DNA of 60,000 nt from Strigamia acuminata (Eukaryota > Arthropoda > Chilopoda > Geophilomorpha > Linotaeniidae). The position numbers were made by a program, and so were the translations under genes. Position 1 is the stretch's first letter; each line of letters opens with the position of its first letter. The notes below the pieces were generated by a model, which saw only the letters and a program-made list of their open reading frames with translations, did no database searches and was not told the DNA's origin. This document shows, piece by piece, positions 19,964-47,257 of the stretch. The stretch is taken from positions 7,504,001 to 7,564,000 of the forward strand of contig OX442319.1 in assembly GCA_949358305.1 (NCBI GenBank), given 5' to 3'.

Positions 19964-21519
19964 ACTGCGATGTGAAATGAGCTCAAAATTTTTTTTTCAA
20001 AATTTATTGCTTGGGTGTTGCTAAAACTTAGATTGAAGGCTTCTACTAAGGTTTAAACACTATTTCTGAACATTCAGAGACATTGGTCTTGTGGTGTTTG
20101 TGCTAAGTCAACTGCGATGTGAAATGAGCTCAAAATTTTTTTCTTCAAAATTTAATGCTTGGGTGTTGCTAAAACTTATATTGAAGGCTTCTACTAAGGT
20201 TTAAACACTATTTCTGAACATTCAGAGACATTAGACTTGTGGTGTTTGTGCTAAGTCAACTGTGATGAGATCAAAAGTCTATTCTCCCAAATCATCGGTT
20301 AAATGTTTCTAAAACTTACATTGGAGCCTTCTACTAAGGTTTAAACACTATTTCTGAACATTCAGAGACATTGGACTTGTGGTGTTTGTGCTAAGTAACT
20401 GTGATGAGATCAAAAGTCTATTCTCCCAAATCATTGCTTGGATGTTGCTAAAACTTACATTGAAGGCTTCTACTAAGGTTTAAACACTATTTCTGAACAT
20501 TCAGAGACATTGGTCTTGTGGTGTTTGTGCTAAGTCAACTGTGATGAGATCAAAAGTCTATTCTCCCAAATCATCGGTTGGATGTTTCTAAAACTTACAT
20601 TGGAGCCTTCTACTAAGGTTTAAACACTATTTCTGAACATTCAGAGACATTGGTCTTATGGTGTTTGTGCTAAGTCAACTATGATGAGATCAAAAGTCTA
20701 TTCTCCCAAATCATTCGTTGGATGTTTCTAAAACTTACATTGGAGCCTTCTACTAAGGTTTAAACACTATTTCTGAACATTCAGAGACATTGGTCTTGTG
20801 GTGTTTGTGCTAAGTCAACTGTGATGAGATCAAAAGTCTATTCTCCCAAATCATCGGTTAAATGTTATAAAACTTACATTGGAGCCTTCTACTAAGGTTT
20901 AAACACTATTTCTGAACATTCAGAGACATTGGTCTTGTGGTGTTTGTGCTAAGTCAACTGTGATGAGATCAAAAGTCTATTCTCCCAAATCATCGGTTAA
21001 ATGTTTCTAAAACTTACATTGGAGCCTTCTACTAAGGTTTAAACACTATTTCTGAACATTCAGAGACATTGGACTTGTGGTGTTTGTGCTAAGTAACTGT
21101 GATGAGATCAAAAGTCTATTCTCCCAAATCATTGCTTGGATGTTGCTAAAACTTACATTGAAGGCTTCTACTAAGGTTTAAACACTATTTCTGAACATTC
21201 AGAGACATTGGTCTTGTGGTGTTTGTGCTAAGTCAACTGTGATGAGATCAAAAGTCTATTCTCCCAAATCATCGGTTGGATGTTTCTAAAACTTACATTG
21301 GAGCCTTCTACTAAGGTTTAAACACTATTTCTGAACATTCAGAGACATTGGTCTTATGGTGTTTGTGCTAAGTCAACTATGATGAGATCAAAAGTCTATT
21401 CTCCCAAATCATCGGTTGAATGTTTCTAAAACTTACATTGGAGCCTTCTACTAAGGTTTAAACACTATTTCTGAACATTCAGAGACATTGGTCTTGTGGT
21501 GTTTGTGCTAAGTCAACTG
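19964..21519. repeat. 140 bp satellite array, part left of the retrotransposon
   Basis: About eleven tandem monomers of ~140 bp. The right part of each is highly conserved (CTTCTACTAAGGTTTAAACA, then ATTTCTGAACATTCAGAGAC). The first two monomers (from 19964 and about 20111) are the longer F type with GCGATGTGAAATGAGCTC and a poly-T run. The others are the GTGATGAGATC type. The array stops abruptly at 21519, where the LTR begins in the middle of the conserved AAGTCAACTGTGATGAG. Confidence 0.97.
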
Positions 21520-22261
21520 TGTTGCTAGCAACATAAAGGAAAGCTGCTAAACGTCTTAAAAATTAGTCATCTGGAATTATTAAAAAGGGTTTTTAATATT
21601 TATCTTAGATTGGGAATTTAATTAGACACTTATTTGAATATAAGTCTTCTTTGAGTTAGTTTGAGTGAATTTCTCAGTACTGGTTGATCTGACCGGATAA
21701 ATCTGGGAAGAAAAGAGTTTTTACATTAGTTATTTATCCACTTAGAATTTATTTTCTATCTTGTTTACCTGTGTTATGCATGTTTTGATGTTTCCAAGTG
21801 TTTTCCTGTTTCCAGTCCACTATTGTCAATGTAGTGACAAGGTGTAATGATGCTCTCAGACAGCAAAAGGGTACTAGAATGAGAAATGTATGTTATTATC
21901 AGTTTTAAGCTGTTTCAATCAATTTCTGTTTGTTTTCTGTATATTACTAACCAATTAAGCGTTTTGTTAACTTAGATTGTGTGTAGCCTGTCTAGTGAGC
22001 TAATTTCAAGCCTTTCTATCTTCCTGCAAGTGATCTCTGTTTACATTGTCGGCCATTACTGTGGGAGTGGTCTACTTGTATCTGTAAAGAGAGGAGAAAA
22101 TGTTTAATCCCAAAGAGTTTTTGTGGGTTCTGATTAATAATTAATCACTTAATTATTATGCAATGTAAAAGTGTTAAGTTTAAGATTTATCTGTGTTGAT
22201 TTATAACTTAACTTCTGCACTTACTGTAAAGTTGCCAGCTCATTGGTCTAAAATGTCTTTA

Positions 22262-22572
22262 CCGTACTGCCTCGATTTAACGCCGGGGCGTTTATTTACT
22301 TTTCCAAGTCGACCCCTCCGGCGATTATTCAAAGCCCGGCGATTATTCGCGCCGGGCGTCTAACGAAAAAAAAAGGTTTTTTTACTGCCGCCACCCAATC
22401 ATTTACGTTAAATTACCGTATATTCGTCTAAAAAACGTTTAAAACCGGCGTTTAAACAAACCCGGCGTTTATTTAAGGCCGGCGTTTATTGCCTTTTCGT
22501 TCTGAGTTTGCCCGGCGTTTAATCAGGAGCCGGCGTTTAGATACGACCGGCGTTAAATCAAGGCAGTACGGT
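22262..22572. mobile_element. 311 bp MITE with TA target duplication (Tc1/mariner-like ends)
   Basis: Present in the 5' LTR and absent from the 3' LTR, where the empty site reads GTCTTTACTTATTC. The filled site has TA at 22260-22261 and 22573-22574. The ends are inverted repeats of ~25 bp starting CCGTACTGCC, with one C/T mismatch. The interior holds many copies of CCGGCGTTTA and related GGCGATTATTC, and no coding frame. TA duplication with TIRs is typical of the Tc1/mariner superfamily, so a transposase elsewhere presumably mobilised it; the exact family is not recognised. Confidence 0.88.
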
Positions 22573-22924
22573 ACTTATTCTTTTCTCTATTTTATGAGTT
22601 GTTCAGTGTGTTTTAGAGTGAATAATTTAGTTCTCAACGAGCATTGTGGTTAGAGACTGTTGTTAATGTATACTTTTGCATTTAATGTCAAATACTTGCT
22701 GTTAGGCTTATGTGTTTTCAACTATTAACTTCTACGGTAGTTTTGTTGTGCCAGCAGTACTTATTTCTCTTTACAAGCACTTAGAGACCTCTGTAACTTT
22801 AAGTGCAAGTGTCCTTATACAATGTGGAGATAGTTACACTTGTTGTTTCTTATTATTGTTAAAGTGTGACTTCTTTGTAATATCCTCGTGATTCAATTGT
22901 AGTAGTCTTGTTAAGAATTTAGAG

Positions 22925-22930
22925 AATAAA
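22925..22930 (+). promoter_or_regulatory. candidate polyadenylation signal in the 5' LTR
   Basis: AATAAA in the context GAGAATAAAATGG, in the 3' third of the LTR. Its equivalent in the 3' LTR is the one expected to be used. Confidence 0.4.
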
Positions 22931-23189
22931 ATGGTTGCTTTTTATTTCTCTCCAAGTCTCATTTCTCTATACAACCAGAAAGCAATGTGCAGTGAGTAGA
23001 AAAATCCTCCTTCCTCCTCCTTGAACTCACCAGTGGCAGATCATCATGTGAAGCAGCAAGTTCAATTCCAGTGTTTGCATTTCTTCAAGTCTTTGGCCAA
23101 CTTCTGTGTATCAGTTTTAGCCAAGCAGCAGTCAAGTATTGCCGCCCCTCCTTCTGGCCTGGTTGTCGCCTGCGACCTTGCCAGAAACA

Positions 23190-24009
23190 ATTTGGTACCG
23201 TGAACCAAGGATTTCTTCCAGTTATCTCAGTGGACCTTCATGTGTGCTGCAAAATTCATCAGTGGGTTTTGTTCTCAAGCTGTGCAAAGCTTTTATGTGT
23301 AAAGTGCCATTGAAGCTGTGCCACTACAGTGAAGTGTATGCTCTCGTCAGCCTTTCACAGGCAAAAAAGTGGGTTTTTCAAGTTGGATTCTCAAATTGTC
23401 AAGATGGTCAAGATGTTTTTCAACTTGGATCAAGCAAGGCTTCGAGAGTACGAGCGATCCTGCACGACAATCAATTCCAAACACAACGCAATATACATCC
23501 TACAAGAAGATTTGAAGAAATAATTATTAAGAATTATTATTTAAATAGAATAATATCCGAATTTGCTGCTGTAATCATTTCAAAGGAGTTTTTGATTAGA
23601 AACTGGTGTAGTTGGGGGGAGAAGAAGTTTAAGTCTTAACAGTTTGAATAAATTCTCGATTCCAGTTTGTGGAATTTAGAGAATATCCAGTGAATTAGTG
23701 AATAATACCAAGCTTTAGTGTTGGTATCCCAATTTAAAACGAGTATCTAGTCAGAAACTCAATTGTGAAAATAAGAGAATTGTCAATTACCTTTAATTAT
23801 TGAATTTTGGGGGTTAATTTGCCAATCCTGTTAACATCCCGTGTGTTTCAATCCTGTTAACAGCTTGTGGATATCCATCCTGCTTTTGTGTGTTCAGTAA
23901 ATCCTAGAGTGTAAAAGAATTAGACAATTTCTTGTTAACCAATTTAGTCAGTTAAGTTGAGTTTGAATCCTGAACTGATCTTTGAATTCTTCATTTCTCG
24001 GTGAGGATT
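23190..24009 (+). other. retrotransposon leader (untranslated)
   Basis: About 820 bp between the 5' LTR and the first ATG of the polyprotein. In the polyprotein frame there are stops at 23953, 23968 and 23977, so translation cannot start further upstream in that frame. A short direct repeat AATCCTGTTAACA occurs at 23824 and 23850. Short frames around 23139-23639 mostly overlap the LTR and primer site and resemble nothing known to me. Packaging signals would be expected here but none can be recognised. Confidence 0.7.
23193..23210 (+). promoter_or_regulatory. candidate tRNA primer binding site
   Basis: TGGTACCGTGAACCAAGG begins 3 bases after the 5' LTR. A site starting TGG directly downstream of the LTR is what pairing with the CCA end of a tRNA requires. 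The tRNA was not identified. Confidence 0.5.
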
Positions 24010-27000
24010 ATGGCTACATTATCCGCTGCTGATCTCGAGGAAAAGGAGGTCATTTGGAAAGCAAAGGCTCAAGGAGCCGAGGATCTGCTGGGATCTTCAG
24101 TCAACATTCTAGACGGAGGAGAGCTGGAAGCCATGCAAATAACGGTTGACCAGCAATTGAGTGATCTCGCCGACGAATTGAAAGCTCTTAAAGACGAGTC
24201 AAAAAGAGAGGACTATTTAGCGGGGCTTCAACGAATTGAAGACATTAGAACCAGAGTAAATTTATTGAAGCAAAGAGCAAAAGTGTCTGGAAAAATGGCA
24301 GGGCAATTTGGTTCCCATCCGGGACAGAATTCCAGTTTAAACCAGACGTCCGCTTCATCTAGGAGAAACACGAGATTGCCGAAAACCGACATTGCCAAAT
24401 TTAGTGGCGATGCAACTGAATATAGAGGTTTTGCGAATTTATTCGAATCAGCAGTTGATCAGAACACGGAGCTTTCGAACGTGGAAAAGCTTATATATCT
24501 GAGGTCATGCTGCACTGGGGCTGCAGAATCCGCAATCAAGTCGTACCCAATAACTGATGACGCCTACCCATTAGCGAAAAACACATTGGAGAGTCTATTC
24601 GGTTCTGAAAACACGCAGAGAAATGCTATTTCAAAGATGATTAGGGAGTCGAAACCCGTTTTCGATCTCTACCCAATCGAGCCACTCAAAGCTCTATTCA
24701 CGTCATTGGCATCTGCTGTCCGGACCATGGCGCAACTGTCTGTGTCAGTTGACACTACTGGAACGTACCTTATTCCAGAACTACTTAGAAAATTTCCACC
24801 GGAGATCTCCCAACGTTTTTACCGAAAGCATCAAGGAAAAGTTGATGATGTTAACGTTTTTCTGGACTTCGTAGCAACCGAGATACAACTGGCTGAATTG
24901 TCGGAAGAAAGCGTTCTCCTTAAGCGCGCTCATCTGAAGAAGTCAGAAAAATTTGAGAAAACTTCAAAGGAAACAAGAGAAAGACCAACTGGAACCATGT
25001 CCTCATTCGTGACTTCCGAGAATGGAAAATTGAGTATGAATTCCAAGTCAAATCCAAACCGCAAACCCGCCTGCGCTTATTGTGATGGTGATCACGCACA
25101 CGCAAATTGTGATGCGGATCTCGATGTACCAGCGAGGATCGAAATAGTGAAGAAGAAACGACTTTGTTTCAACTGCTTGAGATATAACCACACAGCCAAA
25201 GAATGTACCGTGAAGTTTTGTTGTCGCTTGTGTGGTGGAAGACATCACACATCGATCTGCAACAAAAACAACAAAGAAAAAGCGATTACACCAAAAGAAG
25301 AAAACGTGTCTACTAATGTATCGCTTACCGAGTCGGTGGAGATTCAACTGATGGTCTTCACTGCTCTTTTTGTGAAGAAAAATGGAGACATGTACCCCGT
25401 CCGCGGATTATTAGATCCAGGAAGCCATCGCTCCTACGTCACGAAGAGACTAGTAAATAAATTCCGGATGCAAAAGATCGAGACACTACACACGATGACA
25501 CAGTGTCTGCTCAACAAAAAGCCAGTTCCGACGACACATGATGTCTTTAGATTCGAACTACAATCAAGACACGGAACAAAAAAGACATCAATCCTTGCAT
25601 TAGAAACCGACACACTCCCGAAAGTCAAAGGGATAATTGGAGCAGAAGCCATAAAGCAAGTCCAATCACTCGGACTTGAGATGGCTGAGATACATCCGTC
25701 AGAATCGGAAGACATTGACGTCTTATTAGGAAGCAACGCATGGTGGAAGATTTGTCAAGGTGGAAGCCGAAAAATCAACGACGAGTTGGGATTAATGGAG
25801 ACAATTTTTGGGTGGATTCTAAACGGTCGACTGAAACCAAACAACCCGCTTGAAGAAAACATGGCAGCGTGCAACATTTCTTGCATGGCGGTCGAGTCCA
25901 AAGAAGAAGTGATCTCAAATCAACCTGAAAATGACGAAAACAAAATAGTCCAATTAATTCCGAAATCACTGCCCAACATGAATGGCGAACCCGGTGTGAA
26001 TAAACAGACAGACGTCACACCTTCTTGTTTTGCCGCGAGCCTCTCCAGTGGTCTGGAGAAAGAGGAACTGGACACCACCCTCCAAAAAACGAAAAAGTCG
26101 TTCAAGGATGGAGGATTGGTCAACAGAACTCCAAGCTCGGACATGAAGCCGGAATTACGAGGGCGAAATCAGTTAGAGTCAGGAAGAAAGAACGTCGAAT
26201 TACTTACAAACCAAGTGCCCAGTTTACCCAAATTGTGTGCAATCGTGAGATGGAGTGGAAACGTGATTCTGAATTTCTGGAAAAAGAAAATTGATTTGTC
26301 AACCAATCAAAAGGGAATTCATCTCATCATTGGTCCAATGTATGCGGGAAAAACGACCAAGTTATTGAAGCTTTTAGAAAAGGAAGAGAAGACGTCGTCC
26401 CTGCTAATTAAACACTCCAATGACGATCGTTACAGTAAAACCGAAGTCGTGACCCACGACGGTCATCGACGAGAAGCAATTGCTACCAGTAGCCTAACCA
26501 ATGCTGTGGAAAAAACGAAATTAGTGAAGACAATCAGAATTGACGAAGGACAGTTTTTTCCCGACATTTTTACTTTTTCAAATGAAATGGCTGAGCAAAA
26601 GAAAAAGGTAATAGTCGCCGCATTAGACGTCGACTTCAAGAGGAAGCCATTTGATCAGATATCCGAGTTAGTTCCACTAGCCGAGTCTGTTGTGAAACTA
26701 CAAGCAAAATGTTATTTTTGCGGAGATAAAGCTGAATTTTCAAGACGAATTTCGCACGAAACCAGAGTCAAGATGATAGGAGGGATCGACAAATACAAAC
26801 CAACCTGTCGAGTATGTTTCTCAAAGCCCATGAAGTCTCTAGAGACGAAAAGGAAAATCATCAACGGAATTATTCGACTTAGTTGTATGATTGTCAACCG
26901 AAGAATACCTCCGTGGATACCAAATTTGATCCGTCAAAGAATCATGCCACCCAGAGTGGAATACGAAAAGGTGAAAGAGGTCTCCCAAATATTATCATCA

Positions 27001-27027
27001 AAGACCAGAAGTAATCGAACTAAATGA
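24010..27027 (+). CDS. Gag-protease-thymidine kinase fusion polyprotein of a BEL/Pao element
   Basis: A single uninterrupted frame of 1005 codons; residues are counted from the ATG at 24010, which has A at -3 and G at +4. In order: a charged helical N-terminus (about 20-95); a DUF1759-like Gag core (about 123-274, starting LPKTDIAKFSGD); three zinc knuckles (C355-C358-H362-C367, C386-C389-H394-C399, C405-C408-H412-C417); a Pao-type aspartic protease of DUF1758 type (about 445-606) with LLDPGS at 467-472 (active Asp469) and the family's IDVLLGSNAWW and FGWILNG motifs; a linker (607-768); a TK1-type thymidine kinase (about 769-937); and a basic tail (938-1005). Gag would package RNA and the protease would cut the polyprotein. 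No RT, RNase H or integrase motif is present. The linker keeps segments that resemble the start of Pao RT and the pre-integrase region. The protease has Pro where DSG/DTG is usual, so its activity is uncertain. Confidence 0.93.
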   Translation: MATLSAADLEEKEVIWKAKAQGAEDLLGSSVNILDGGELEAMQITVDQQLSDLADELKALKDESKREDYLAGLQRIEDIRTRVNLLKQRAKVSGKMAGQFGSHPGQNSSLNQTSASSRRNTRLPKTDIAKFSGDATEYRGFANLFESAVDQNTELSNVEKLIYLRSCCTGAAESAIKSYPITDDAYPLAKNTLESLFGSENTQRNAISKMIRESKPVFDLYPIEPLKALFTSLASAVRTMAQLSVSVDTTGTYLIPELLRKFPPEISQRFYRKHQGKVDDVNVFLDFVATEIQLAELSEESVLLKRAHLKKSEKFEKTSKETRERPTGTMSSFVTSENGKLSMNSKSNPNRKPACAYCDGDHAHANCDADLDVPARIEIVKKKRLCFNCLRYNHTAKECTVKFCCRLCGGRHHTSICNKNNKEKAITPKEENVSTNVSLTESVEIQLMVFTALFVKKNGDMYPVRGLLDPGSHRSYVTKRLVNKFRMQKIETLHTMTQCLLNKKPVPTTHDVFRFELQSRHGTKKTSILALETDTLPKVKGIIGAEAIKQVQSLGLEMAEIHPSESEDIDVLLGSNAWWKICQGGSRKINDELGLMETIFGWILNGRLKPNNPLEENMAACNISCMAVESKEEVISNQPENDENKIVQLIPKSLPNMNGEPGVNKQTDVTPSCFAASLSSGLEKEELDTTLQKTKKSFKDGGLVNRTPSSDMKPELRGRNQLESGRKNVELLTNQVPSLPKLCAIVRWSGNVILNFWKKKIDLSTNQKGIHLIIGPMYAGKTTKLLKLLEKEEKTSSLLIKHSNDDRYSKTEVVTHDGHRREAIATSSLTNAVEKTKLVKTIRIDEGQFFPDIFTFSNEMAEQKKKVIVAALDVDFKRKPFDQISELVPLAESVVKLQAKCYFCGDKAEFSRRISHETRVKMIGGIDKYKPTCRVCFSKPMKSLETKRKIINGIIRLSCMIVNRRIPPWIPNLIRQRIMPPRVEYEKVKEVSQILSSKTRSNRTK
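26065..26280 (+). other. possible remnants of pol around a large internal deletion
   Basis: Residues around 686-695 (EEELDTTLQK type) resemble the segment that opens Pao reverse transcriptase. Residues 728-757 (NVELLTNQ ... PKLCAIVRW ... NFWKK) resemble the segment BEL/Pao polyproteins carry just before integrase. The ~35 residues between them would hold the deletion junction that removed RT and RNase H. This is judged from remembered family patterns only. Confidence 0.4.
26314..26820 (+). other. thymidine kinase (TK1-type) domain within the polyprotein
   Basis: TK1-type kinases phosphorylate deoxythymidine to dTMP with ATP in nucleotide salvage. The sequence shows the Walker A motif GPMYAGKT (775-782); RYS (807-809) and THD (815-817); IDEGQFFPD (844-852), in which Glu846 is the expected catalytic base; RKPF and LVPLAESVVKL; two CxxC pairs (Cys901, Cys904, Cys933, Cys936) that bind the structural zinc; and the substrate-lasso GGIDKY ending at Tyr929. 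Length and motif order match a complete TK1 core with no frameshift or stop. The LVPLAESVVKL stretch looks eukaryotic rather than bacterial. There are no introns, as expected for capture through RNA. Whether it came from the host, another animal or a virus cannot be told by reading. Confidence 0.93.
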
Positions 27028-27062
27028 TGGGTTGTTCGCACTTTCTTTTCGCCGGCAATCTA

Positions 27063-28420
27063 TGTTGCTAGCAACATAAAGGAAAGCTGCTAAACGTCTT
27101 AAAAATTAGTCATCTGGAATTATTAAAAAGGGTTTTTAATATTTATCTTAGATTGGGAATTTAATTAGACACTTATTTGAATATAAGTCTTCTTTGAGTT
27201 AGTTTGAGTGAATTTCTCAGTACTGGTTGATCTGACCGGATAAATCTGGGAAGAAAAGAGTTTTTACATTAGTTATTTATCCACTTAGAATTTATTTTCT
27301 ATCTTGTTTACCTGTGTTATGCATGTTTTGATGTTTCCAAGTGTTTTCCTGTTTCCAGTCCACTATTGTCAATGTAGTGACAAGGTGTAATGATGCTCTC
27401 AGACAGCAAAAGGGTACTAGAATGAGAAATGTATGTTATTATCAGTTTTAAGCTGTTTCAATCAATTTCTGTTTGTTTTCTGTATATTACTAACCAATTA
27501 AGCGTTTTGTTAACTTAGATTGTGTGTAGCCTGTCTAGTGAGCTAATTTCAAGCCTTTCTATCTTCCTGCAAGTGATCTCTGTTTACATTGTCGGCCATT
27601 ACTGTGGGAGTGGTCTACTTGTATCTGTAAAGAGAGGAGAAAATGTTTAATCCCAAAGAGTTTTTGTGGGTTCTGATTAATAATTAATCACTTAATTATT
27701 ATGCAATGTAAAAGTGTTAAGTTTAAGATTTATCTGTGTTGATTTATAACTTAACTTCTGCACTTACTGTAAAGTTGCCAGCTCATTGGTCTAAAATGTC
27801 TTTACTTATTCTTTTCTCTATTTTATGAGTTGTTCAGTGTGTTTTAGAGTGAATAATTTAGTTCTCAACGAGCATTGTGGTTAGAGACTGTTGTTAATGT
27901 ATACTTTTGCATTTAATGTCAAATACTTGCTGTTAGGCTTATGTGTTTTCAACTATTAACTTCTACGGTAGTTTTGTTGTGCCAGCAGTACTTATTTCTC
28001 TTTACAAGCACTTAGAGACCTCTGTAACTTTAAGTGCAAGTGTCCTTATACAATGTGGAGATAGTTACACTTGTTGTTTCTTATTATTGTTAAAGTGTGA
28101 CTTCTTTGTAATATCCTCGTGATTCAATTGTAGTAGTCTTGTTAAGAATTTAGAGAATAAAATGGTTGCTTTTTATTTCTCTCCAAGTCTCATTTCTCTA
28201 TACAACCAGAAAGCAATGTGCAGTGAGTAGAAAAATCCTCCTTCCTCCTCCTTGAACTCACCAGTGGCAGATCATCATGTGAAGCAGCAAGTTCAATTCC
28301 AGTGTTTGCATTTCTTCAAGTCTTTGGCCAACTTCTGTGTATCAGTTTTAGCCAAGCAGCAGTCAAGTATTGCCGCCCCTCCTTCTGGCCTGGTTGTCGC
28401 CTGCGACCTTGCCAGAAACA
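27063..28420 (+). repeat. 3' LTR
   Basis: 1358 bp direct copy of the 5' LTR without the MITE, beginning TGTTGCTAGCAACATAAAGG and ending CCAGAAACA. It follows the stop codon of the polyprotein by only 35 bp. The bases just upstream are not a classic polypurine tract; they read CTTTCTTTTCGCCGGCAATC, so the plus-strand primer site is unclear. Confidence 0.92.
28156..28161 (+). promoter_or_regulatory. candidate polyadenylation signal in the 3' LTR
   Basis: AATAAA at the same LTR position as 22925-22930, about 260 bp before the LTR end, where it could terminate the element's transcript. Confidence 0.45.
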
Positions 28421-31400
28421 ACTGTGATGAGATCAAAAGTCTATTCTCCCAAATCATCGGTTGGATGTTTCTAAAACTTACATTGGAGCCTTCTACTAAG
28501 GTTTAAACACTATTTCTGAACATTCAGAGACATTGGACTTGTGGTGTTTGTGCTAAGTCAACGGCGATGTGAAATGAGCTCAAAATTTTTTTTTCAAAAT
28601 TTATTGCTTAGGTGTTGCTAAAACTTATATTGAAGGCTTCTACTAAGGTTTAAACACTATTTCTGAACATTCAGAGACATTGGTCTTGTGGTGTTTGTGC
28701 TAAGTCAACTGCGATGTGAAATGAGCTCAAAATTTTTTTTTCAAAAATTAATGCTTGGGTGTTGCTAAAACTTATATTGAAGGCTTCTACTAAGGTTTAA
28801 ACACTATTTCTGAACATTCAGAGACATTAGACTTGTGGTGTTTGTGCTAAGTCAACTGTGATGAGATCAAAAGTTTATTCTCCCAAATCATTCGTTGGAT
28901 GTTTCTAAAACTTACATTGGAGCCTTCTACTAAGGTTTAAACACTATTTCTGAACATTCAGAGACATTGGTCTTGTGGTGTTTGTGCTAAGTCAACTGTG
29001 ATGAGATCAAAAGTCTATTCTCCCAAATCATCGGTTAAATGTTATAAAACTTACATTGGAGCCTTCTACTAAGGTTTAAACACTATTTCTGAACATTCAG
29101 AGACATTGGTCTTGTGGTGTTTGTGCTAAGTCAACTGTGATGAGATCAAAAGTCTATTCTCCCAAATCATCGGTTAAATGTTTCTAAAACTTACATTGGA
29201 GCCTTCTACTAAGGTTTAAACACTATTTCTGAACATTCAGAGACATTGGACTTGTGGTGTTTGTGCTAAGTAACTGTGATGAGATCAAAAGTCTATTCTC
29301 CCAAATCATTGCTTGGATGTTGCTAAAACTTACATTGAAGGCTTCTACTAAGGTTTAAACACTATTTCTGAACATTCAGAGACATTGGTCTTGTGGTGTT
29401 TGTGCTAAGTCAACTGTGATGAGATCAAAGTCTATTCTCCCAAATCATCGGTTGGATGTTTCTAAAACTTACATTGGAGCCTTCTACTAAGGTTTAAACA
29501 CTATTTCTGAACATTCAGAGACATTGGTCTTATGGTGTTTGTGCTAAGTCAACTGCGATGAGATCAAAAGTCTATTCTCCCAAATCATCGGTTGAATGTT
29601 TCTAAAACTTACATTGGAGCCTTCTACTAAGGTTTAAACACTATTTCTGAACATTCAGAGACATTGGTCTTGTGGTGTTTGTGCTAAGTCAACTGTGATG
29701 AGATCAAAAGTCTATTCTCCCAAATCATTGGTTAAATGTTTCTAAAACTTACATTGGAGCCTTCTACTAAGGTTTAAACACTATTTCTGAACATTCAGAG
29801 ACATTGGTCTTGTGGTGTTTGTGCTAAGTCAACTGTGATGAGATCAAAAGTCTATTCTCCCAAATCATTGGTTGGATGTTTCTAAAACTTACATTGGAGC
29901 CTTCTACTAAGGTTTAAACACTATTTCTGAACATTCAGAGACATTGGTCTTGTGGTGTTTGTGCTAAGTCAACTGTGATGAGATCAAAAGTCTATTCTCC
30001 CAAATCATCGGTTGAATGTTTCTAAAACTTACATTGGAGCCTTCTACTAAGGTTTAAACACTATTTCTGAACATTCAGAGACATTGGTCTTGTGGTGTTT
30101 GTGCTAAGTCAACTGTGATGAGATCAAAAGTCTATTCTCCCAAATCATCGGTTAAATGTTATAAAACTTACATTGGAGCCTTCTACTAAGGTTTAAACAC
30201 TATTTCTGAACATTCAGAGACATTGGTCTTGTGGTGTTTGTGCTAAGTCAACTGTGATGAGATCAAAAGTCTATTCTCCCAAATCATCGGTTGGATGTTT
30301 CTAAAACTTACATTGGAGCCTTCTACTAAGGTTTAAACACTATTTCTGAACATTCAGAGACATTGGTCTTGTGGTGTTTGTGCTAAGTCAACTGTGATGA
30401 GATCAAAAGTCTATTCTCCCAAATCATCGGTTGGATGTTTCTAAAACTTACATTGGAGCCTTCTACTAAGGTTTAAACACTATTTCTGAACATTCAGAGA
30501 CATTGGTCTTGTGGTGTTTGTGCTAAGTCAACTGTGATGAGATCAAAAGTCTATTCTCCCAAATCATTGGTTGGATGTTTCTAAAACTTACATTGGAGCC
30601 TTCTACTAAGGTTTAAACACTATTTCTGAACATTCAGAGACATTGGTCTTGTGGTGTTTGTGCTAAGTCAACTGTGATGAGATCAAAAGTCTATTCTCCC
30701 AAATCATCGGTTAAATGTTTCTAAAACTTACATTGGAGCCTTCTACTAAGGTTTAAACACTATTTCTGAACATTCAGAGACATTGGTCTTGTGGTGTTTG
30801 TGCTAAGTCAACTGTGATGAGATCAAAAGTCTATTCTCCCAAATCATCGGTTGGATGTTTCTAAAACTTACATTGGAGCCTTCTACTAAGGTTTAAACAC
30901 TATTTCTGAACATTCAGAGACATTGGTCTTGTGGTGTTTGTGCTAAGTCAACTGTGATGAGATCAAAAGTCTATTCTCCCAAATCATTGGTTGGATGTTT
31001 CTAAAACTTACATTGGAGCCTTCTACTAAGGTTTAAACACTATTTCTGAACATTCAGAGACATTGGTCTTGTGGTGTTTGTGCTAAGTCAACTGTGATGA
31101 GATCAAAAGTCTATTCTCCCAAATCATCGGTTAAATGTTTCTAAAACTTACATTGGAGCCTTCTACTAAGGTTTAAACACTATTTCTGAACATTCAGAGA
31201 CATTGGTCTTGTGGTGTTTGTGCTAAGTCAACTGTGATGAGATCAAAAGTCTATTCTCCCAAATCATCGGTTGGATGTTTCTAAAACTTACATTGGAGCC
31301 TTCTACTAAGGTTTAAACACTATTTCTGAACATTCAGAGACATTGGACTTGTGGTGTTTGTGCTAAGTCAACTGCGATGTGAAATGAGCTCAAAATTTTT

Positions 31401-34209
31401 TTTTCAAAATTTATTGCTTGGGTGTTGCTAAAACTTAGATTGAAGGCTTCTACTAAGGTTTAAACACTATTTCTGAACATTCAGAGACATTGGTCTTGTG
31501 GTGTTTGTGCTAAGTCAACTGCGATGTGAAATGAGCTCAAAATTTTTTTCTTCAAAATTTAATGCTTGGGTGTTGCTAAAACTTATATTGAAGGCTTCTA
31601 CTAAGGTTTAAACACTATTTCTGAACATACAGAGACATTGGACTTGTGGTGTTTGTGCTAAGTAACTGTGATGAGATCAAAAGTCTATTCTCCCAAATCA
31701 TTGCTTGGATGTTGCTAAAACTTACATTGAAGGCTTCTACTAAGGTTTAAACACTATTTCTGAACATTCAGAGACATTGGTCTTGTGGTGTTTGTGCTAA
31801 GTCAACTGTGATGAGATCAAAAGTCTATTCTCCCAAATCATCGGTTGTATGTTTCTAAAACTTACATTGGAGCCTTCTACTAAGGTTTAAACACTATTTC
31901 TGAACATTCAGAGACATTGGTCTTATGGTGTTTGTGCTAAGTCAACTATGATGAGATCAAAAGTCTATTCTCCCAAATCATCGGTTGAATGTTTCTAAAA
32001 CTTACATTGGAGCCTTCTACTAAGGTTTAAACACTATTTCTGAACATTCAGAGACATTGGTCTTGTGGTGTTTGTGCTAAGTCAACTGTGATGAGATCAA
32101 AAGTCTATTCTCCCAAATCATCGGTTGGATGTTTCTAAAACTTACATTGGAGCCTTCTACTAAGGTTTAAACACTATTTCTGAACATTCAGAGACATTGG
32201 ACTTGTGGTGTTTGTGCTAAGTCAACTGCGATGTGAAATGAGCTCAAAATTTTTTTTTCAAAATTTATTGCTTAGGTGTTGCTAAAACTTATATTGAAGG
32301 CTTCTACTAAGGTTTAAACACTATTTCTGAACATTCAGAGACATTGGTCTTGTGGTGTTTGTGCTAAGTCAACTGCGATGTGAAATGAGCTCAAAATTTT
32401 TTTTTCAAAATTTAATGCTTGGGTGTTGCTAAAACTTATATTGAAGGCTTCTACTAAGGTTTAAACACTATTTCTGAACATTCAGAGACATTAGACTTGT
32501 GGTGTTTGTGCTAAGTCAACTGTGATGAGATCAAAAGTTTATTCTCCCAAATCATTCGTTGGATGTTTCTAAAACTTACATTGGAGCCTTCTACTAAGGT
32601 TTAAACACTATTTCTGAACATTCAGAGACATTGGTCTTATGGTGTTTGTGCTAAGTCAACTGTGATGAGATCAAAAGTCTATTCTCCCAAATCATCAGTT
32701 GGATGTTTCTAAAACTTACATTGGAGCCTTTTACTAAGGTTTAAACACTATTTCTGAACATTCAGAGACATTGGTCTTGTGGTGTTTGTGCTAAGTCAAC
32801 TGTGATGAGATCAAAAGTCTATTCTCCCAAATCATCGGTTAAATGTTATAAAACTTACATTGGAGCCTTCTACTAAGGTTTAATCACTATTTCTGAACAT
32901 TCAGAGACATTGGTCTTGTGGTGTTTGTGCTAAGTCAACTGTGATGAGATCAAAAGTCTATTCTCCCAAATCATCGGTTAAATGTTTCTAAAACTTACAT
33001 TGGAGCCTTCTACTAAGGTTTAAACACTATTTCTGAACATTCAGAGACATTGGACTTGTGGTGTTTGTGCTAAGTAACTGTGATGAGATCAAAAGTCTAT
33101 TCTCCCAAATCATTGCTTGGATGTTGCTAAAACTTACATTGAAGGCTTCTACTAAGGTTTAAACACTATTTCTGAACATTCAGAGACATTGGTCTTGTGG
33201 TGTTTGTGCTAAGTCAACTGTGATGAGATCAAAGTCTATTCTCCCAAATCATCGGTTGGATGTTTCTAAAACTTACATTGGAGCCTTCTACTAAGGTTTA
33301 AACACTATTTCTGAACATTCAGAGACATTGGTCTTATGGTGTTTGTGCTAAGTCAACTATGATGAGATCAAAAGTCTATTCTCCCAAATCATCGGTTGAA
33401 TGTTTCTAAAACTTACATTGGAGCCTTCTACTAAGGTTTAAACACTATTTCTGAACATTCAGAGACATTGGACTTGTGGTGTTTGTGCTAAGTCAACTGC
33501 GATGTAAAATGAGCTCAAAATTTTTTTTTCAAAATTTATTGCTTAGGTGTTGCTAAAACTTATATTGAAGGCTTCTACTAAGGTTTAAACACTATTTCTG
33601 AACATTCAGAGACATTGGTCTTGTGGTGTTTGTGCTAAGTCAACTGCGATGTAAAATGAGCTCAAAATTTTTTTTTCAAAATTTAATGCTTGGGTGTTGC
33701 TAAAACTTATATTGAAGGCTTCTACTAAGGTTTAAACACTATTTCTGAACATTCAGAGACATTGGACTTGTGGTGTTTGTGCTAAGTCAACTGTGATGAG
33801 ATCAAAAGTCTATTCTCCCAAATCATTGGTTGGATGTTTCTAAAACTTACATTGGAGCCTTCTACTAAGGTTTAAACACTATTTCTGAATATTCAGAGAC
33901 ATTGGTCTTGTGGTGTTTGTGCTAAGTCAACTGTGATGAGATCAAAAGTCTATTCTCCCAAATCATTGGTTGGATGTTTCTAAAACTTACATTGGAGCCT
34001 TCTACTAAGGTTTAAACACTATTTCTGAACATTCAGAGACATTGGTCTTGTGGTGTTTGTGCTAAGTCAACTGTGATGAGATCAAAAGTCTATTCTCCCA
34101 AATCATCGGTTAAATGTTTCTAAAACTTACATTGGAGCCTTCTACTAAGGTTTAAACACTATTTCTGAACATTCAGAGACATTGGTCTTGTGGTGTTTGT
34201 GCTAAGTCA

Positions 34210-37200
34210 ACTGTGATGAGATCAAAAGTCTATTCTCCCAAATCATTGGTTGGATGTTTCTAAAACTTACATTGGAGCCTTCTACTAAGGTTTAAACACT
34301 ATTTCTGAACATTCAGAGACATTGGTCTTGTGGTGTTTGTGCTAAGTCAACTGTGATGAGATCAAAAGTCTATTCTCCCAAATCATTGGTTGGATGTTTC
34401 TAAAACTTACATTGGAGCCTTCTACTAAGGTTTAAACACTATTTCTGAACATTCAGAGACATTGGTCTTGTGGTGTTTGTGCTAAGTCAACTGTGATGAG
34501 ATCAAAAGTCTATTCTCCCAAATCATCGGTTGAATGTTTCTAAAACTTACATTGGAGCCTTCTACTAAGGTTTAAACACTATTTCTGAACATTCAGAGAC
34601 ATTGGTCTTGTGGTGTTTGTGCTAAGTCAACTGTGATGAGATCAAAAGTCTATTCTCCCAAATCATCGGTTAAATGTTTCTAAAACTTACATTGGAGCCT
34701 TCTACTAAGGTTTAAACACTATTTCTGAACATTCAGAGACATTGGTCTTGTGGTGTTTGTGCTAAGTCAACTGTGATGAGATCAAAAGTCTATTCTCCCA
34801 AATCATTGGTTGGATGTTTCTAAAACTTACATTGGAGCCTTCTACTAAGGTTTAAACACTATTTCTGAACATTCAGAGACATTGGTCTTGTGGTGTTTGT
34901 GCTAAGTCAACTGTGATGAGATCAAAAGTCTATTCTCCCAAATCATCGGTTGAATGTTTCTAAAACTTACATTGGAGCCTTCTACTAAGGTTTAAACACT
35001 ATTTCTGAACATTCAGAGACATTGGTCTTGTGGTGTTTGTGCTAAGTCAACTGTGATGAGATCAAAAGTCTATTCTCCCAAATCATCGGTTAAATGTTAT
35101 AAAACTTACATTGGAGCCTTCTACTAAGGTTTAAACACTATTTCTGAACATTCAGAGACATTGGTCTTGTGGTGTTTGTGCTAAGTCAACTGTGATGAGA
35201 TCAAAAGTCTATTCTCCCAAATCATCGGTTGGATGTTTCTAAAACTTACATTGGAGCCTTCTACTAAGGTTTAAACACTATTTCTGAACATTCAGAGACA
35301 TTGGTCTTGTGGTGTTTGTGCTAAGTCAACTGTGATGAGATCAAAAGTCTATTCTCCCAAATCATTGGTTGGATGTTTCTAAAACTTACATTGGAGCCTT
35401 CTACTAAGGTTTAAACACTATTTCTGAACATTCAGAGACATTGGTCTTGTGGTGTTTGTGCTAAGTCAACTGTGATGAGATCAAAAGTCTATTCTCCCAA
35501 ATCATCGGTTAAATGTTTCTAAAACTTACATTGGAGCCTTCTACTAAGGTTTAAACACTATTTCTGAACATTCAGAGACATTGGTCTTGTGGTGTTTGTG
35601 CTAAGTCAACTGTGATGAGATCAAAAGTCTATTCTCCCAAATCATCGGTTAAATGTTTCTAAAACCTACATTGGAGCCTTCTACTAAGGTTTAAACACTA
35701 TTTCTGAACATTCAGAGACATTGGTCTTGTGGTGTTTGTGCTAAGTCAACTGTGATGAGATCAAAAGTCTATTCTCCCAAATCATTGGTTGGATGTTTCT
35801 AAAACTTACATTGGAGCCTTCTACTAAGGTTTAAACACTATTTCTGAACATTCAGAGACATTGGTCTTGTGGTGTTTGTGCTAAGTCAACTGTGATGAGA
35901 TCAAAAGTCTATTCTCCCAAATCATTGGTTGGATGTTTCTAAAACTTACATTGGAGCCTTCTACTAAGGTTTAAACACTATTTCTGAACATTCAGAGACA
36001 TTGGTCTTGTGGTGTTTGTGCTAAGTCAACTGTGATGAGATCAAAAGTCTATTCTCCCAAATCATCGGTTGAATGTTTCTAAAACTTACATTGGAGCCTT
36101 CTACTAAGGTTTAAACACTATTTCTGAACATTCAGAGACATTGGTCTTGTGGTGTTTGTGCTAAGTCAACTGTGATGAGATCAAAAGTCTATTCTCCCAA
36201 ATCATCGGTTAAATGTTTCTAAAACTTACATTGGAGCCTTCTACTAAGGTTTAAACACTATTTCTGAACATTCAGAGACATTGGTCTTGTGGTGTTTGTG
36301 CTAAGTCAACTGTGATGAGATCAAAAGTCTATTCTCCCAAATCATTGGTTGGATGTTTCTAAAACTTACATTGGAGCCTTCTACTAAGGTTTAAACACTA
36401 TTTCTGAACATTCAGAGACATTGGTCTTGTGGTGTTTGTGCTAAGTCAACTGTGATGAGATCAAAAGTCTATTCTCCCAAATCATCGGTTGAATGTTTCT
36501 AAAACTTACATTGGAGCCTTCTACTAAGGTTTAAACACTATTTCTGAACATTCAGAGACATTGGTCTTGTGGTGTTTGTGCTAAGTCAACTGTGATGAGA
36601 TCAAAAGTCTATTCTCCCAAATCATCGGTTAAATGTTATAAAACTTACATTGGAGCCTTCTACTAAGGTTTAAACACTATTTCTGAACATTCAGAGACAT
36701 TGGTCTTGTGGTGTTTGTGCTAAGTCAACTGTGATGAGATCAAAAGTCTATTCTCCCAAATCATCGGTTGGATGTTTCTAAAACTTACATTGGAGCCTTC
36801 TACTAAGGTTTAAACACTATTTCTGAACATTCAGAGACATTGGTCTTGTGGTGTTTGTGCTAAGTCAACTGTGATGAGATCAAAAGTCTATTCTCCCAAA
36901 TCATTGGTTGGATGTTTCTAAAACTTACATTGGAGCCTTCTACTAAGGTTTAAACACTATTTCTGAACATTCAGAGACATTGGTCTTGTGGTGTTTGTGC
37001 TAAGTCAACTGTGATGAGATCAAAAGTCTATTCTCCCAAATCATCGGTTAAATGTTTCTAAAACTTACATTGGAGCCTTCTACTAAGGTTTAAACACTAT
37101 TTCTGAACATTCAGAGACATTGGTCTTGTGGTGTTTGTGCTAAGTCAACTGTGATGAGATCAAAAGTCTATTCTCCCAAATCATCGGTTAAATGTTTCTA

Positions 37201-37287
37201 AAACCTACATTGGAGCCTTCTACTAAGGTTTAAACACTATTTCTGAACATTCAGAGACATTGGTCTTGTGGTGTTTGTGCTAAGTCA
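34210..37287. repeat. two tandem copies of an 11-monomer higher-order repeat
   Basis: The variant order A A B C A B C' D A C C* occupies 34210-35748 and repeats at 35749-37287. The period is 1539 bp (ten 140 bp monomers plus the 139 bp C'). C* is a C monomer with the private change AAAACCTACA, at about 35665 and 37204. Confidence 0.85.
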
Positions 37288-37574
37288 ACTGTGATGAGAT
37301 CAAAAGTCTATTCTCCCAAATCATCGGTTGAATGTTTCTAAAACTTACATTGGAGCCTTCTACTAAGGTTTAAACACTATTTCTGAACATTCAGAGACAT
37401 TGGACTTGTGGTGTTTGTGCTAAGTCAACTGCGATGTAAAATGAGCTCAAAATTTTTTTTTCAAAATTTATTGCTTAGGTGTTGCTAAAACTTATATTGA
37501 AGGCTTCTACTAAGGTTTAAACACTATTTCTGAACATTCAGAGACATTGGACTTGTGGTGTTTGTGCTAAGTCA

Positions 37575-39113
37575 ACTGTGATGAGATCAAAAGTCTATTC
37601 TCCCAAATCATTGGTTGGATGTTTCTAAAACTTACATTGGAGCCTTCTACTAAGGTTTAAACACTATTTCTGAACATTCAGAGACATTGGTCTTGTGGTG
37701 TTTGTGCTAAGTCAACTGTGATGAGATCAAAAGTCTATTCTCCCAAATCATTGGTTGGATGTTTCTAAAACTTACATTGGAGCCTTCTACTAAGGTTTAA
37801 ACACTATTTCTGAACATTCAGAGACATTGGTCTTGTGGTGTTTGTGCTAAGTCAACTGTGATGAGATCAAAAGTCTATTCTCCCAAATCATCGGTTGAAT
37901 GTTTCTAAAACTTACATTGGAGCCTTCTACTAAGGTTTAAACACTATTTCTGAACATTCAGAGACATTGGTCTTGTGGTGTTTGTGCTAAGTCAACTGTG
38001 ATGAGATCAAAAGTCTATTCTCCCAAATCATCGGTTAAATGTTTCTAAAACTTACATTGGAGCCTTCTACTAAGGTTTAAACACTATTTCTGAACATTCA
38101 GAGACATTGGTCTTGTGGTGTTTGTGCTAAGTCAACTGTGATGAGATCAAAAGTCTATTCTCCCAAATCATTGGTTGGATGTTTCTAAAACTTACATTGG
38201 AGCCTTCTACTAAGGTTTAAACACTATTTCTGAACATTCAGAGACATTGGTCTTGTGGTGTTTGTGCTAAGTCAACTGTGATGAGATCAAAAGTCTATTC
38301 TCCCAAATCATCGGTTGAATGTTTCTAAAACTTACATTGGAGCCTTCTACTAAGGTTTAAACACTATTTCTGAACATTCAGAGACATTGGTCTTGTGGTG
38401 TTTGTGCTAAGTCAACTGTGATGAGATCAAAAGTCTATTCTCCCAAATCATCGGTTAAATGTTATAAAACTTACATTGGAGCCTTCTACTAAGGTTTAAA
38501 CACTATTTCTGAACATTCAGAGACATTGGTCTTGTGGTGTTTGTGCTAAGTCAACTGTGATGAGATCAAAAGTCTATTCTCCCAAATCATCGGTTGGATG
38601 TTTCTAAAACTTACATTGGAGCCTTCTACTAAGGTTTAAACACTATTTCTGAACATTCAGAGACATTGGTCTTGTGGTGTTTGTGCTAAGTCAACTGTGA
38701 TGAGATCAAAAGTCTATTCTCCCAAATCATTGGTTGGATGTTTCTAAAACTTACATTGGAGCCTTCTACTAAGGTTTAAACACTATTTCTGAACATTCAG
38801 AGACATTGGTCTTGTGGTGTTTGTGCTAAGTCAACTGTGATGAGATCAAAAGTCTATTCTCCCAAATCATCGGTTAAATGTTTCTAAAACTTACATTGGA
38901 GCCTTCTACTAAGGTTTAAACACTATTTCTGAACATTCAGAGACATTGGTCTTGTGGTGTTTGTGCTAAGTCAACTGTGATGAGATCAAAAGTCTATTCT
39001 CCCAAATCATCGGTTAAATGTTTCTAAAACCTACATTGGAGCCTTCTACTAAGGTTTAAACACTATTTCTGAACATTCAGAGACATTGGTCTTGTGGTGT
39101 TTGTGCTAAGTCA
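37575..39113. repeat. third copy of the 11-monomer higher-order repeat
   Basis: Same order A A B C A B C' D A C C* and 1539 bp length, separated from the previous copy by one B monomer (37288, with GGACTTG) and one F monomer (37428). Shortened or rearranged relatives follow, with the C* marker again near 40430 and 42110. Confidence 0.8.
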
Positions 39114-42100
39114 ACTGTGATGAGATCAAAAGTCTATTCTCCCAAATCATTGGTTGGATGTTTCTAAAACTTACATTGGAGCCTTCTACTAAGGTTTAAA
39201 CACTATTTCTGAACATTCAGAGACATTGGTCTTGTGGTGTTTGTGCTAAGTCAACTGTGATGAGATCAAAAGTCTATTCTCCCAAATCATCGGTTGAATG
39301 TTTCTAAAACTTACATTGGAGCCTTCTACTAAGGTTTAAACACTATTTCTGAACATTCAGAGACATTGGTCTTGTGGTGTTTGTGCTAAGTCAACTGTGA
39401 TGAGATCAAAAGTCTATTCTCCCAAATCATTGGTTGGATGTTTCTAAAACTTACATTGGAGCCTTCTACTAAGGTTTAAACACTATTTCTGAACATTCAG
39501 AGACATTGGTCTTGTGGTGTTTGTGCTAAGTCAACTGTGATGAGATCAAAAGTCTATTCTCCCAAATCATTGGTTGGATGTTTCTAAAACTTACATTGGA
39601 GCCTTCTACTAAGGTTTAAACACTATTTCTGAACATTCAGAGACATTGGTCTTGTGGTGTTTGTGCTAAGTCAACTGTGATGAGATCAAAAGTCTATTCT
39701 CCCAAATCATCGGTTGAATGTTTCTAAAACTTACATTGGAGCCTTCTACTAAGGTTTAAACACTATTTCTGAACATTCAGAGACATTGGTCTTGTGGTGT
39801 TTGTGCTAAGTCAACTGTGATGAGATCAAAAGTCTATTCTCCCAAATCATCGGTTAAATGTTTCTAAAACTTACATTGGAGCCTTCTACTAAGGTTTAAA
39901 CACTATTTCTGAACATTCAGAGACATTGGTCTTGTGGTGTTTGTGCTAAGTCAACTGTGATGAGATCAAAAGTCTATTCTCCCAAATCATTGGTTGGATG
40001 TTTCTAAAACTTACATTGGAGCCTTCTACTAAGGTTTAAACACTATTTCTGAACATTCAGAGACATTGGTCTTGTGGTGTTTGTGCTAAGTCAACTGTGA
40101 TGAGATCAAAAGTCTATTCTCCCAAATCATCGGTTGAATGTTTCTAAAACTTACATTGGAGCCTTCTACTAAGGTTTAAACACTATTTCTGAACATTCAG
40201 AGACATTGGTCTTGTGGTGTTTGTGCTAAGTCAACTGTGATGAGATCAAAAGTCTATTCTCCCAAATCATCGGTTAAATGTTTCTAAAACTTACATTGGA
40301 GCCTTCTACTAAGGTTTAAACACTATTTCTGAACATTCAGAGACATTGGTCTTGTGGTGTTTGTGCTAAGTCAACTGTGATGAGATCAAAAGTCTATTCT
40401 CCCAAATCATCGGTTAAATGTTTCTAAAACCTACATTGGAGCCTTCTACTAAGGTTTAAACACTATTTCTGAACATTCAGAGACATTGGTCTTGTGGTGT
40501 TTGTGCTAAGTCAACTGTGATGAGATCAAAAGTCTATTCTCCCAAATCATTGGTTGGATGTTTCTAAAACTTACATTGGAGCCTTCTACTAAGGTTTAAA
40601 CACTATTTCTGAACATTCAGAGACATTGGTCTTGTGGTGTTTGTGCTAAGTCAACTGTGATGAGATCAAAAGTCTATTCTCCCAAATCATCGGTTGAATG
40701 TTTCTAAAACTTACATTGGAGCCTTCTACTAAGGTTTAAACACTATTTCTGAACATTCAGAGACATTGGTCTTGTGGTGTTTGTGCTAAGTCAACTGTGA
40801 TGAGATCAAAAGTCTATTCTCCCAAATCATTGGTTGGATGTTTCTAAAACTTACATTGGAGCCTTCTACTAAGGTTTAAACACTATTTCTGAACATTCAG
40901 AGACATTGGTCTTGTGGTGTTTGTGCTAAGTCAACTGTGATGAGATCAAAAGTCTATTCTCCCAAATCATTGGTTGGATGTTTCTAAAACTTACATTGGA
41001 GCCTTCTACTAAGGTTTAAACACTATTTCTGAACATTCAGAGACATTGGTCTTGTGGTGTTTGTGCTAAGTCAACTGTGATGAGATCAAAAGTCTATTCT
41101 CCCAAATCATCGGTTGAATGTTTCTAAAACTTACATTGGAGCCTTCTACTAAGGTTTAAACACTATTTCTGAACATTCAGAGACATTGGTCTTGTGGTGT
41201 TTGTGCTAAGTCAACTGTGATGAGATCAAAAGTCTATTCTCCCAAATCATCGGTTAAATGTTTCTAAAACTTACATTGGAGCCTTCTACTAAGGTTTAAA
41301 CACTATTTCTGAACATTCAGAGACATTGGTCTTGTGGTGTTTGTGCTAAGTCAACTGTGATGAGATCAAAAGTCTATTCTCCCAAATCATTGGTTGGATG
41401 TTTCTAAAACTTACATTGGAGCCTTCTACTAAGGTTTAAACACTATTTCTGAACATTCAGAGACATTGGTCTTGTGGTGTTTGTGCTAAGTCAACTGTGA
41501 TGAGATCAAAAGTCTATTCTCCCAAATCATCGGTTGAATGTTTCTAAAACTTACATTGGAGCCTTCTACTAAGGTTTAAACACTATTTCTGAACATTCAG
41601 AGACATTGGTCTTGTGGTGTTTGTGCTAAGTCAACTGTGATGAGATCAAAAGTCTATTCTCCCAAATCATCGGTTGGATGTTTCTAAAACTTACATTGGA
41701 GCCTTCTACTAAGGTTTAAACACTATTTCTGAACATTCAGAGACATTGGTCTTGTGGTGTTTGTGCTAAGTCAACTGTGATGAGATCAAAAGTCTATTCT
41801 CCCAAATCATTGGTTGGATGTTTCTAAAACTTACATTGGAGCCTTCTACTAAGGTTTAAACACTATTTCTGAACATTCAGAGACATTGGTCTTGTGGTGT
41901 TTGTGCTAAGTCAACTGTGATGAGATCAAAAGTCTATTCTCCCAAATCATCGGTTAAATGTTTCTAAAACTTACATTGGAGCCTTCTACTAAGGTTTAAA
42001 CACTATTTCTGAACATTCAGAGACATTGGTCTTGTGGTGTTTGTGCTAAGTCAACTGTGATGAGATCAAAAGTCTATTCTCCCAAATCATCGGTTAAATG

Positions 42101-42612
42101 TTTCTAAAACCTACATTGGAGCCTTCTACTAAGGTTTAAACACTATTTCTGAACATTCAGAGACATTGGTCTTGTGGTGTTTGTGCTAAGTCAACTGTGA
42201 TGAGATCAAAAGTCTATTCTCCCAAATCATTGGTTGGATGTTTCTAAAACTTACATTGGAGCCTTCTACTAAGGTTTAAACACTATTTCTGAACATTCAG
42301 AGACATTGGTCTTGTGGTGTTTGTGCTAAGTCAACTGTGATGAGATCAAAAGTCTATTCTCCCAAATCATCGGTTGAATGTTTCTAAAACTTACATTGGA
42401 GCCTTCTACTAAGGTTTAAACACTATTTCTGAACATTCAGAGACATTGGTCTTGTGGTGTTTGTGCTAAGTCAACTGTGATGAGATCAAAAGTCTATTCT
42501 CCCAAATCATCGGTTAAATGTTATAAAACTTACATTGGAGCCTTCTACTAAGGTTTAAACACTATTTCTGAACATTCAGAGACATTGGTCTTGTGGTGTT
42601 TGTGCTAAGTCA

Positions 42613-47117: not shown

Positions 47118-47257
47118 ACTGTGATGAGATCAAAAGTCTATTCTCCCAAATCATCGGTTAAATGTTTCTAAAACTTACATTGGAGCCTTCTACTAAGGTT
47201 TAAACACTATTTCTGAACATTCAGAGACATTGGTCTTGTGTTGTTTGTGCTAAGTCA

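What the first reader, a model, noticed from the sequence alone, without database searches (positions are those of the whole stretch)
24010..27027. BEL/Pao retrotransposon with an in-frame thymidine kinase replacing most of pol
The frame runs without a break from Gag, zinc knuckles and a Pao-type protease into a TK1 domain with every key motif intact (GPMYAGKT, IDEGQFFPD, two CxxC pairs, GGIDKY). I know of no described BEL/Pao element carrying a nucleotide kinase. A TK inside the capsid precursor could raise dTTP supply for reverse transcription in non-dividing cells, where salvage enzymes are limiting; that role is inference. An alternative is a passive one-off transduction.
Basis: partly seen in the sequence, partly recalled or inferred. 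Interest (0 to 1): 0.95.

Follow-up and report, generated by a model that had tools for sequence, protein, structure and literature searches.

The report
Jumping gene carrying a thymidine kinase
A family of copy-and-paste jumping genes in an unnamed animal-like genome carries a thymidine kinase, an enzyme that makes a DNA building block, in place of its own copying enzymes, and that kinase has been kept by selection while the family spread to dozens of copies.

The parts
19977..59514 (.). 140-bp satellite array (19977-21519 and 28421-59514) into which the element inserted
   Evidence: TRF period 140, 221 copies at 28419-59514; BLAST cover
21516..21519 (+). target site duplication ACTG, left copy
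21520..23189 (+). 5' LTR (1358 bp plus a 312-nt insertion), TG...CA
   Evidence: 743-nt prefix and 618-nt suffix identical to the 3' LTR
22262..22571 (.). 310-bp MITE-like insertion in the 5' LTR, 27-bp inverted ends, TA (or TAC) duplication; later than the retrotransposon
   Evidence: absent from the 3' LTR, and the LTRs of L043, L045, L046 and L047 are 1357-1358 bp
23190..23210 (+). putative primer-binding site ATTTGGTACCGTGAACCAAGG; B family has TTTTTGGTACCGTGACCCAAGG at the same place
   Evidence: tRNA not identified, assignment inferred
24010..27027 (+). Gag-protease-linker-TK-tail single ORF, 1005 aa
24010..25299 (+). Gag (residues 1-430), DUF1759 at 131-272, zinc knuckles at about 355-420
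   Evidence: alignment to autonomous BEL L083; borders of the segments are my choice
25300..25884 (+). protease (residues 431-625), LLDPGSHRSY motif
   Evidence: DUF1758 in the B homologue
25885..26307 (+). fast-evolving linker (residues 626-766), omega 0.60
26308..26829 (+). thymidine kinase domain, TK1 type (residues 767-940)
   Evidence: omega 0.12
26830..27024 (+). C-terminal tail (941-1005); 941-985 about half identical between families A and B
27063..28420 (+). 3' LTR, 1358 bp
28421..28424 (+). target site duplication ACTG, right copy

Best explanation
A non-autonomous BEL/Pao LTR retrotransposon lineage that lacks RT-RNaseH-integrase and carries in their place a TK1-type thymidine kinase related to the other TK copies of its host genome. 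SHOWN: LTRs, TSDs, one Gag-PR-TK frame, many copies in open frames, two diverged families sharing the same order, purifying selection on the kinase. INFERRED: the LTR-driven RNA is translated into Gag-PR-TK; Gag packages the RNA and the protease frees or exposes the kinase; RT and integrase come in trans from one of the many autonomous BEL elements in the genome; the kinase, made with the particle, phosphorylates thymidine to dTMP and so raises dTTP where and when reverse transcription occurs, for instance in cells or stages with low salvage TK activity.
Against: No activity, expression or particle data. The helper is not identified: the one autonomous BEL compared is only 27% identical in knuckles/PR, and the genome search for the nearest Gag did not complete. 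A and B kinases depart from the reference at 13 and 14 of 62 columns invariant in 24 reference TKs, including D107N in B and G108V in A, so substrate or activity may have changed. The window copy has G843R. Among recent A copies the TK pN/pS is 0.40 on few sites, against 0.06 for the Gag part read, weaker than the long-term value. The B2 row (L044) is truncated, and A-B synonymous change is saturated.
Confidence: 0.6

Rival explanations
1. The kinase domain is kept for a non-catalytic role: a folded, nucleotide- or RNA-binding, oligomerising module that helps particle assembly, packaging or recruitment of the helper's pol.
For: TK1 enzymes form tetramers (recalled). The domain is fused to Gag-PR, and several near-invariant TK1 positions have changed in A and B. 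The tail beyond the TK is partly conserved between A and B.
Against: The P-loop lysine, IDEGQFF, the four zinc-site cysteines and GG...Y are invariant in the A, B, B2, C, D and E rows aligned; their roles are recalled. A purely structural role would not need the whole active site.
Confidence: 0.22
2. Passive transduction: a TK cDNA was trapped once in an element and hitchhikes without function.
For: Gene transduction by retroelements is well known (recalled).
Against: Two families at about 55% TK identity keep it in frame; omega 0.12, 2dlnL 169; within-family pairs alone 0.11-0.13; 84 of 98 A/B rows in open frames of at least 995 aa.
Confidence: 0.04
3. Host-serving role: element copies act as a dispersed TK gene family for the host, which keeps them.
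For: The same genome holds 52 further scored TK rows in three other repeat families (C 13, D 5, E 34), also constrained where tested (C against E: dS 1.03, dN 0.13).
Against: Gag and protease are at least as constrained as the TK, which fits selection for mobility. LTRs are nearly identical and 13 of 21 insertions read sit in satellite DNA.
Confidence: 0.08
4. A and B acquired or refreshed their TK separately (gene conversion or module exchange with other TK-bearing repeats), so part of the constraint was inherited from cellular genes.
For: A and A1 differ mostly in one patch of about 600 nt over linker and TK start. The TK occurs in repeats with unrelated flanks.
Against: The A+B TKs form one clade (98/97) beside C+D+E and share a tail not seen in the C, D or E rows. 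Support drops to 95/66 when more rows are added.
Confidence: 0.15

Closest known systems
BEL/Pao LTR retrotransposons (autonomous)
   Same: LTRs, 4-5 bp TSDs, DUF1759 Gag, zinc knuckles and protease homologous to an autonomous BEL of the same genome
   Different: RT, RNase H and integrase absent; linker and TK1 domain follow the protease where RT starts in the autonomous relative
dUTPase-bearing retroviruses and bdelloid LTR retrotransposons (Juno, Vesta, TelKA; PMC5408684, PMC4531489, passages read)
   Same: a dTTP-related nucleotide enzyme inside the polyprotein, in the bdelloid elements right after the protease; same logic of local pool control
   Different: different fold and reaction (TK1, not dUTPase); no RT in the element; term counts in the main texts: 'kinase' 0 in PMC5408684, 'thymidine kinase' 0 in PMC4531489
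Cellular TK1 and poxvirus thymidine kinase
   Same: 40-51% identical in the 120 hits listed of 865, mostly animal TK1 or unnamed, one pox TK at 46%; same fold
   Different: sits in a retrotransposon polyprotein; clusters with this genome's other TK copies, not with a given named animal or pox TK
Gag-only or pol-less non-autonomous LTR elements, such as plant BARE-2 and LARDs (recalled)
   Same: mobile without own pol, presumably by complementation
   Different: keeps Gag and protease and adds an enzyme under selection

Membership tests
BEL/Pao LTR retrotransposon | paired LTRs with TG...CA ends | tested here: met
BEL/Pao LTR retrotransposon | 4-6 bp target site duplication | tested here: met
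   21 of 21 A/A1 insertions read have 4-5 bp; of B copies two were read: L041 AATC, and L042 TTTG (for L042 the script's edges were 2 bases off, TTTG is read off the printed letters)
BEL/Pao LTR retrotransposon | BEL-type Gag (DUF1759) and zinc knuckles | tested here: met
   PF03564 E 2e-17, 64 bits, cut-off 25.4
BEL/Pao LTR retrotransposon | BEL-type aspartic protease | tested here: met
   no Pfam hit in the window protein; DUF1758 just under cut-off in B; homologous to the protease stretch of autonomous BEL L083, E 1e-23
BEL/Pao LTR retrotransposon | RT, Peptidase_A17, integrase (DUF5641) | tested here: not met
   absent from the ORF; the only other frames of at least 100 aa there are one of 166 aa and one of 100 aa, which were not scanned; so not an autonomous member but a non-autonomous derivative
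BEL/Pao LTR retrotransposon | placement in an RT phylogeny | not testable with these tools
   no RT in the element
TK1-type (type II) thymidine kinase | PF00265 above gathering score | tested here: met
   182.5 bits, cut-off 20.6
TK1-type (type II) thymidine kinase | TK1 fold | tested here: met
TK1-type (type II) thymidine kinase | conserved active-site and zinc-binding residues | tested here: met
   34 columns invariant in 28 rows including A, B, D and E; but 13 of 62 reference-invariant columns changed in A and R for G in the window copy
TK1-type (type II) thymidine kinase | phosphorylates thymidine | not testable with these tools
   no assay
retroelement-encoded dUTPase | dUTPase domain | tested here: not met
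   no dUTPase family in the Pfam scan of the ORF at E <= 0.1

The most novel reading that the evidence does not exclude
The first retrotransposon lineage known to carry its own nucleoside kinase: a pol-less parasite of autonomous BEL elements that supplies Gag, protease and dTMP instead of polymerase, and whose TK belongs to a pool of TK genes carried by several unrelated repeat families of one genome, perhaps as part of a contest over dTTP in cells where elements copy themselves.
Probability: 0.5. Interest if true: 0.9.

Novelty: new variant of a known kind. Interest (0 to 1): 0.83.

Why it matters
Retroviruses and some LTR elements guard the dTTP/dUTP ratio with a dUTPase. A kinase beside the protease in the same kind of polyprotein would be a second, independent solution: making the nucleotide rather than cleaning the pool. 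It makes it testable whether thymidine supply limits retrotransposition in an animal, and it is an unusual pol-less element that is nonetheless selected for what looks like enzyme function.

Tried and rejected
Assembly chimera: rejected (many copies, TSDs). One-off transduction: rejected. TK as chance similarity: rejected. Long C-family frames of 1118 and 1999 aa looked like TK inside a full pol; L031-L033 hold 2500-4400 N each, so these frames are artefacts. C, D and E loci were checked for gag or pol: 13 ORFs scanned (9 of the 10, 4 of the 7), no gag or pol, weak hits of no clear meaning (7tm_1, DUF4870, Gp5_trimer_C, DUF4816); most of their sequence was not scanned and their nature is unresolved. 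A fusion of similar length in the 5.8-billion protein set: none at E <= 0.001 among 2888 candidates; I guess this says little, since such sets rarely hold ORFs of repeats. NCBIfam TK models score below their cut-offs. Rfam in the element: none. Literature: 10 answered searches; no paper on a TK in an LTR retrotransposon was seen in the listings (for 67, 78 and 105 only the first 12, 8 and 10 of 390, 31 and 3229 were listed); one search was set too loosely (3 of 4 terms) to be informative. Host organism: not identified; the rRNA search did not complete. Pfam was run on the long ORF only, not on every frame between the LTRs.

Full report

The element. Two LTRs flank the frame at 21520-23189 and 27063-28420. 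They are identical over 1358 bp apart from a 312-nt difference in the 5' copy: a 310-bp MITE-like insertion with inverted ends and a TA (or TAC) duplication. The outer flanks repeat ACTG. The element interrupts a 140-bp satellite that otherwise fills 19977-59514. Behind the 5' LTR lies ATTTGGTACCGTGAACCAAGG, a probable primer site similar in form to that of family B. The internal part is 3873 nt, of which the ORF takes 3018, so there is no room for RT and integrase.

Where the kinase sits. A 1501-base piece of an autonomous BEL of this genome (L083, just upstream of a Peptidase_A17 match in a 1742-aa frame and taken to be the same frame) reads knuckles, protease, then RT without a stop. Family A and B proteins align to it through knuckles and protease (A 355-609, B 367-624; 27-28% identity) and stop before RT. 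So linker and TK stand in place of RT-RNaseH-integrase, and the protease is retained.

Copies. A search of the genome with the TK segment scored 150 of 204 candidates. Tallied: 54 rows are family A-like (89-100% identity; 47 in stop-free frames of at least 1009 aa), 44 family B-like (54-56%; 37 in frames of at least 995 aa), 13 family C, 5 family D and 34 family E. Gag-PR next to the TK was read directly in the nine ORFs and, from residue 257 on, in the 30 A copies L001-L030; for the other rows it is inferred from frame length. The LTR search scored 40 of 122 candidates, all 99-100% identical; 34 of the 40 rows form 17 pairs 5219-5233 apart. I read both edges of 21 A/A1 elements: 5 from held loci and 16 by 42-base stretches. 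All 21 have exact 4-5 bp duplications; in 13 of 21 the empty site matches the satellite with 0-2 mismatches of 36, in the other 8 with 18-20. Two of the 13 (C21 and C1) have identical flanks and may be one locus assembled twice. B copies L041 and L042 have 4-bp duplications; L041 sits inside the pol of an autonomous BEL. On the large contigs A/B rows fall in limited blocks: all 16 rows on C8 at 6.80-7.53 Mb of 14.7 Mb, all 20 on C13 in the last 2.5 Mb, all 11 on C1 at 64.2-66.5 Mb of 67.0 Mb, as expected for satellite-rich, perhaps centromeric, regions (inference).

Age and history. The LTR pairs of the five A/A1 copies with both LTRs held differ by 0-2 bases in 1357-1358, so these insertions are recent. 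A and B, at 56% Gag, 60% protease and 55% TK identity, share the same order including a tail beyond the TK, so the fusion is probably old. A and A1 differ mostly in one patch over linker and TK start, which suggests recombination.

Selection. Codon models over five rows (A, A1, two B, B2) give omega: Gag 0.082, protease 0.091, linker 0.604, TK 0.122, tail 0.306. Fixing omega at 1 costs 2dlnL 169 for the TK and 7.8 for the linker (four-row runs are close). Within-family pairs give the same: A/A1 TK dS 0.135, dN 0.017; B/B2 dS 1.02, dN 0.114. A to B synonymous change is saturated in Gag, protease and TK, and the B2 copy is truncated. Two very close B pairs have too few changes to judge. Among 30 A copies (21 coding haplotypes, no stops in the part read) TK polymorphism is 7 synonymous and 10 replacement, pN/pS 0.40, against 14 and 3 in the Gag part: relaxed among recent copies, or merely few. 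The window copy carries G843R, as do 5 others of the 30; 24 have G. The A kinase keeps 49 of 62 columns that are invariant in 24 reference TKs; B keeps 44, with 4 gaps from a row cut short.

Origin. Searches with the TK domain find TK1 enzymes at 40-51% identity in the 120 listed of 865 hits, mostly animal or unnamed, no close relative; a profile search also found none (120 listed of 7750). In a tree of 49 rows A+B form one clade (98/97), and A+B+C+D+E form one (100/98) against 39 other TKs, with a warning about long branches. With nematode and protist tandem kinases added, the group holds at 97/93 but includes one very long stray branch, and A+B support is 95/66. So the source was probably a TK of this host lineage or of its repeats. 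C, D and E are uninterrupted TK ORFs in large repeats in which I found no gag or pol; C against E is also constrained (dS 1.03, dN 0.13).

Mechanism. Shown: anatomy, mobility, copy number, constraint. Inferred: translation as Gag-PR-TK, packaging by its own Gag, RT and integrase in trans from autonomous BEL elements (150 Peptidase_A17 matches scored of 1068 candidates), and thymidine phosphorylation near reverse transcription. The nearest precedent is dUTPase: PMC5408684 (passages) places it between PR and RT in bdelloid LTR elements, and PMC4531489 (passages) reports that the dUTPase of non-primate lentiviruses is critical only in non-dividing cells. The term counts there were 'kinase' 0 in the first and 'thymidine kinase' 0 in the second.

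Limits. The helper, expression, activity and host name are unknown; 'animal' is inferred from the TK and BEL kinship. The search for the nearest Gag in the genome was sent 24 times and never answered. Novelty rests on ten full-text searches of an open-access library without bioRxiv holdings, and on recall.

Noticed in passing
G000 families C (L031-L035), D (L036, L037, L050), E (L038, L039, L049): 52 further scored TK rows in three different large repeat families, with no gag or pol found in the ORFs scanned; E has 34 rows spread over many contigs, and the three copies read have near-identical protein. What moves them is unknown.
   Followed up: partly
window 1-19763: Tandem array of a roughly 3.7-kb GC-rich unit (about 49-56% GC) with a repeated 155-aa frame and 53-bp sub-repeats, directly next to the AT-rich 140-bp satellite.
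   Followed up: no
window 22262-22571: MITE-like element with 27-bp inverted ends and TA (or TAC) duplication inside the 5' LTR, with internal CCGGCGTTTA motifs.
   Followed up: partly
13 of 21 A/A1 insertions: Frequent insertion into the 140-bp satellite, several within a few bases of AAGTCAACTGTG in either orientation: possible target preference, not tested statistically.
   Followed up: partly
L041:1-2922: Family B element inserted into the integrase end of an autonomous BEL pol (Peptidase_A17, Integrase_H2C2, DUF5641, weak RVT_1).
   Followed up: yes
L040: Two B copies in tandem, 5.2 kb apart and 99% identical, with an LTR between them.
   Followed up: no
L045 versus L043: A and A1 are nearly identical except for one patch of about 600 nt in linker and TK start: mosaic origin.
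   Followed up: partly
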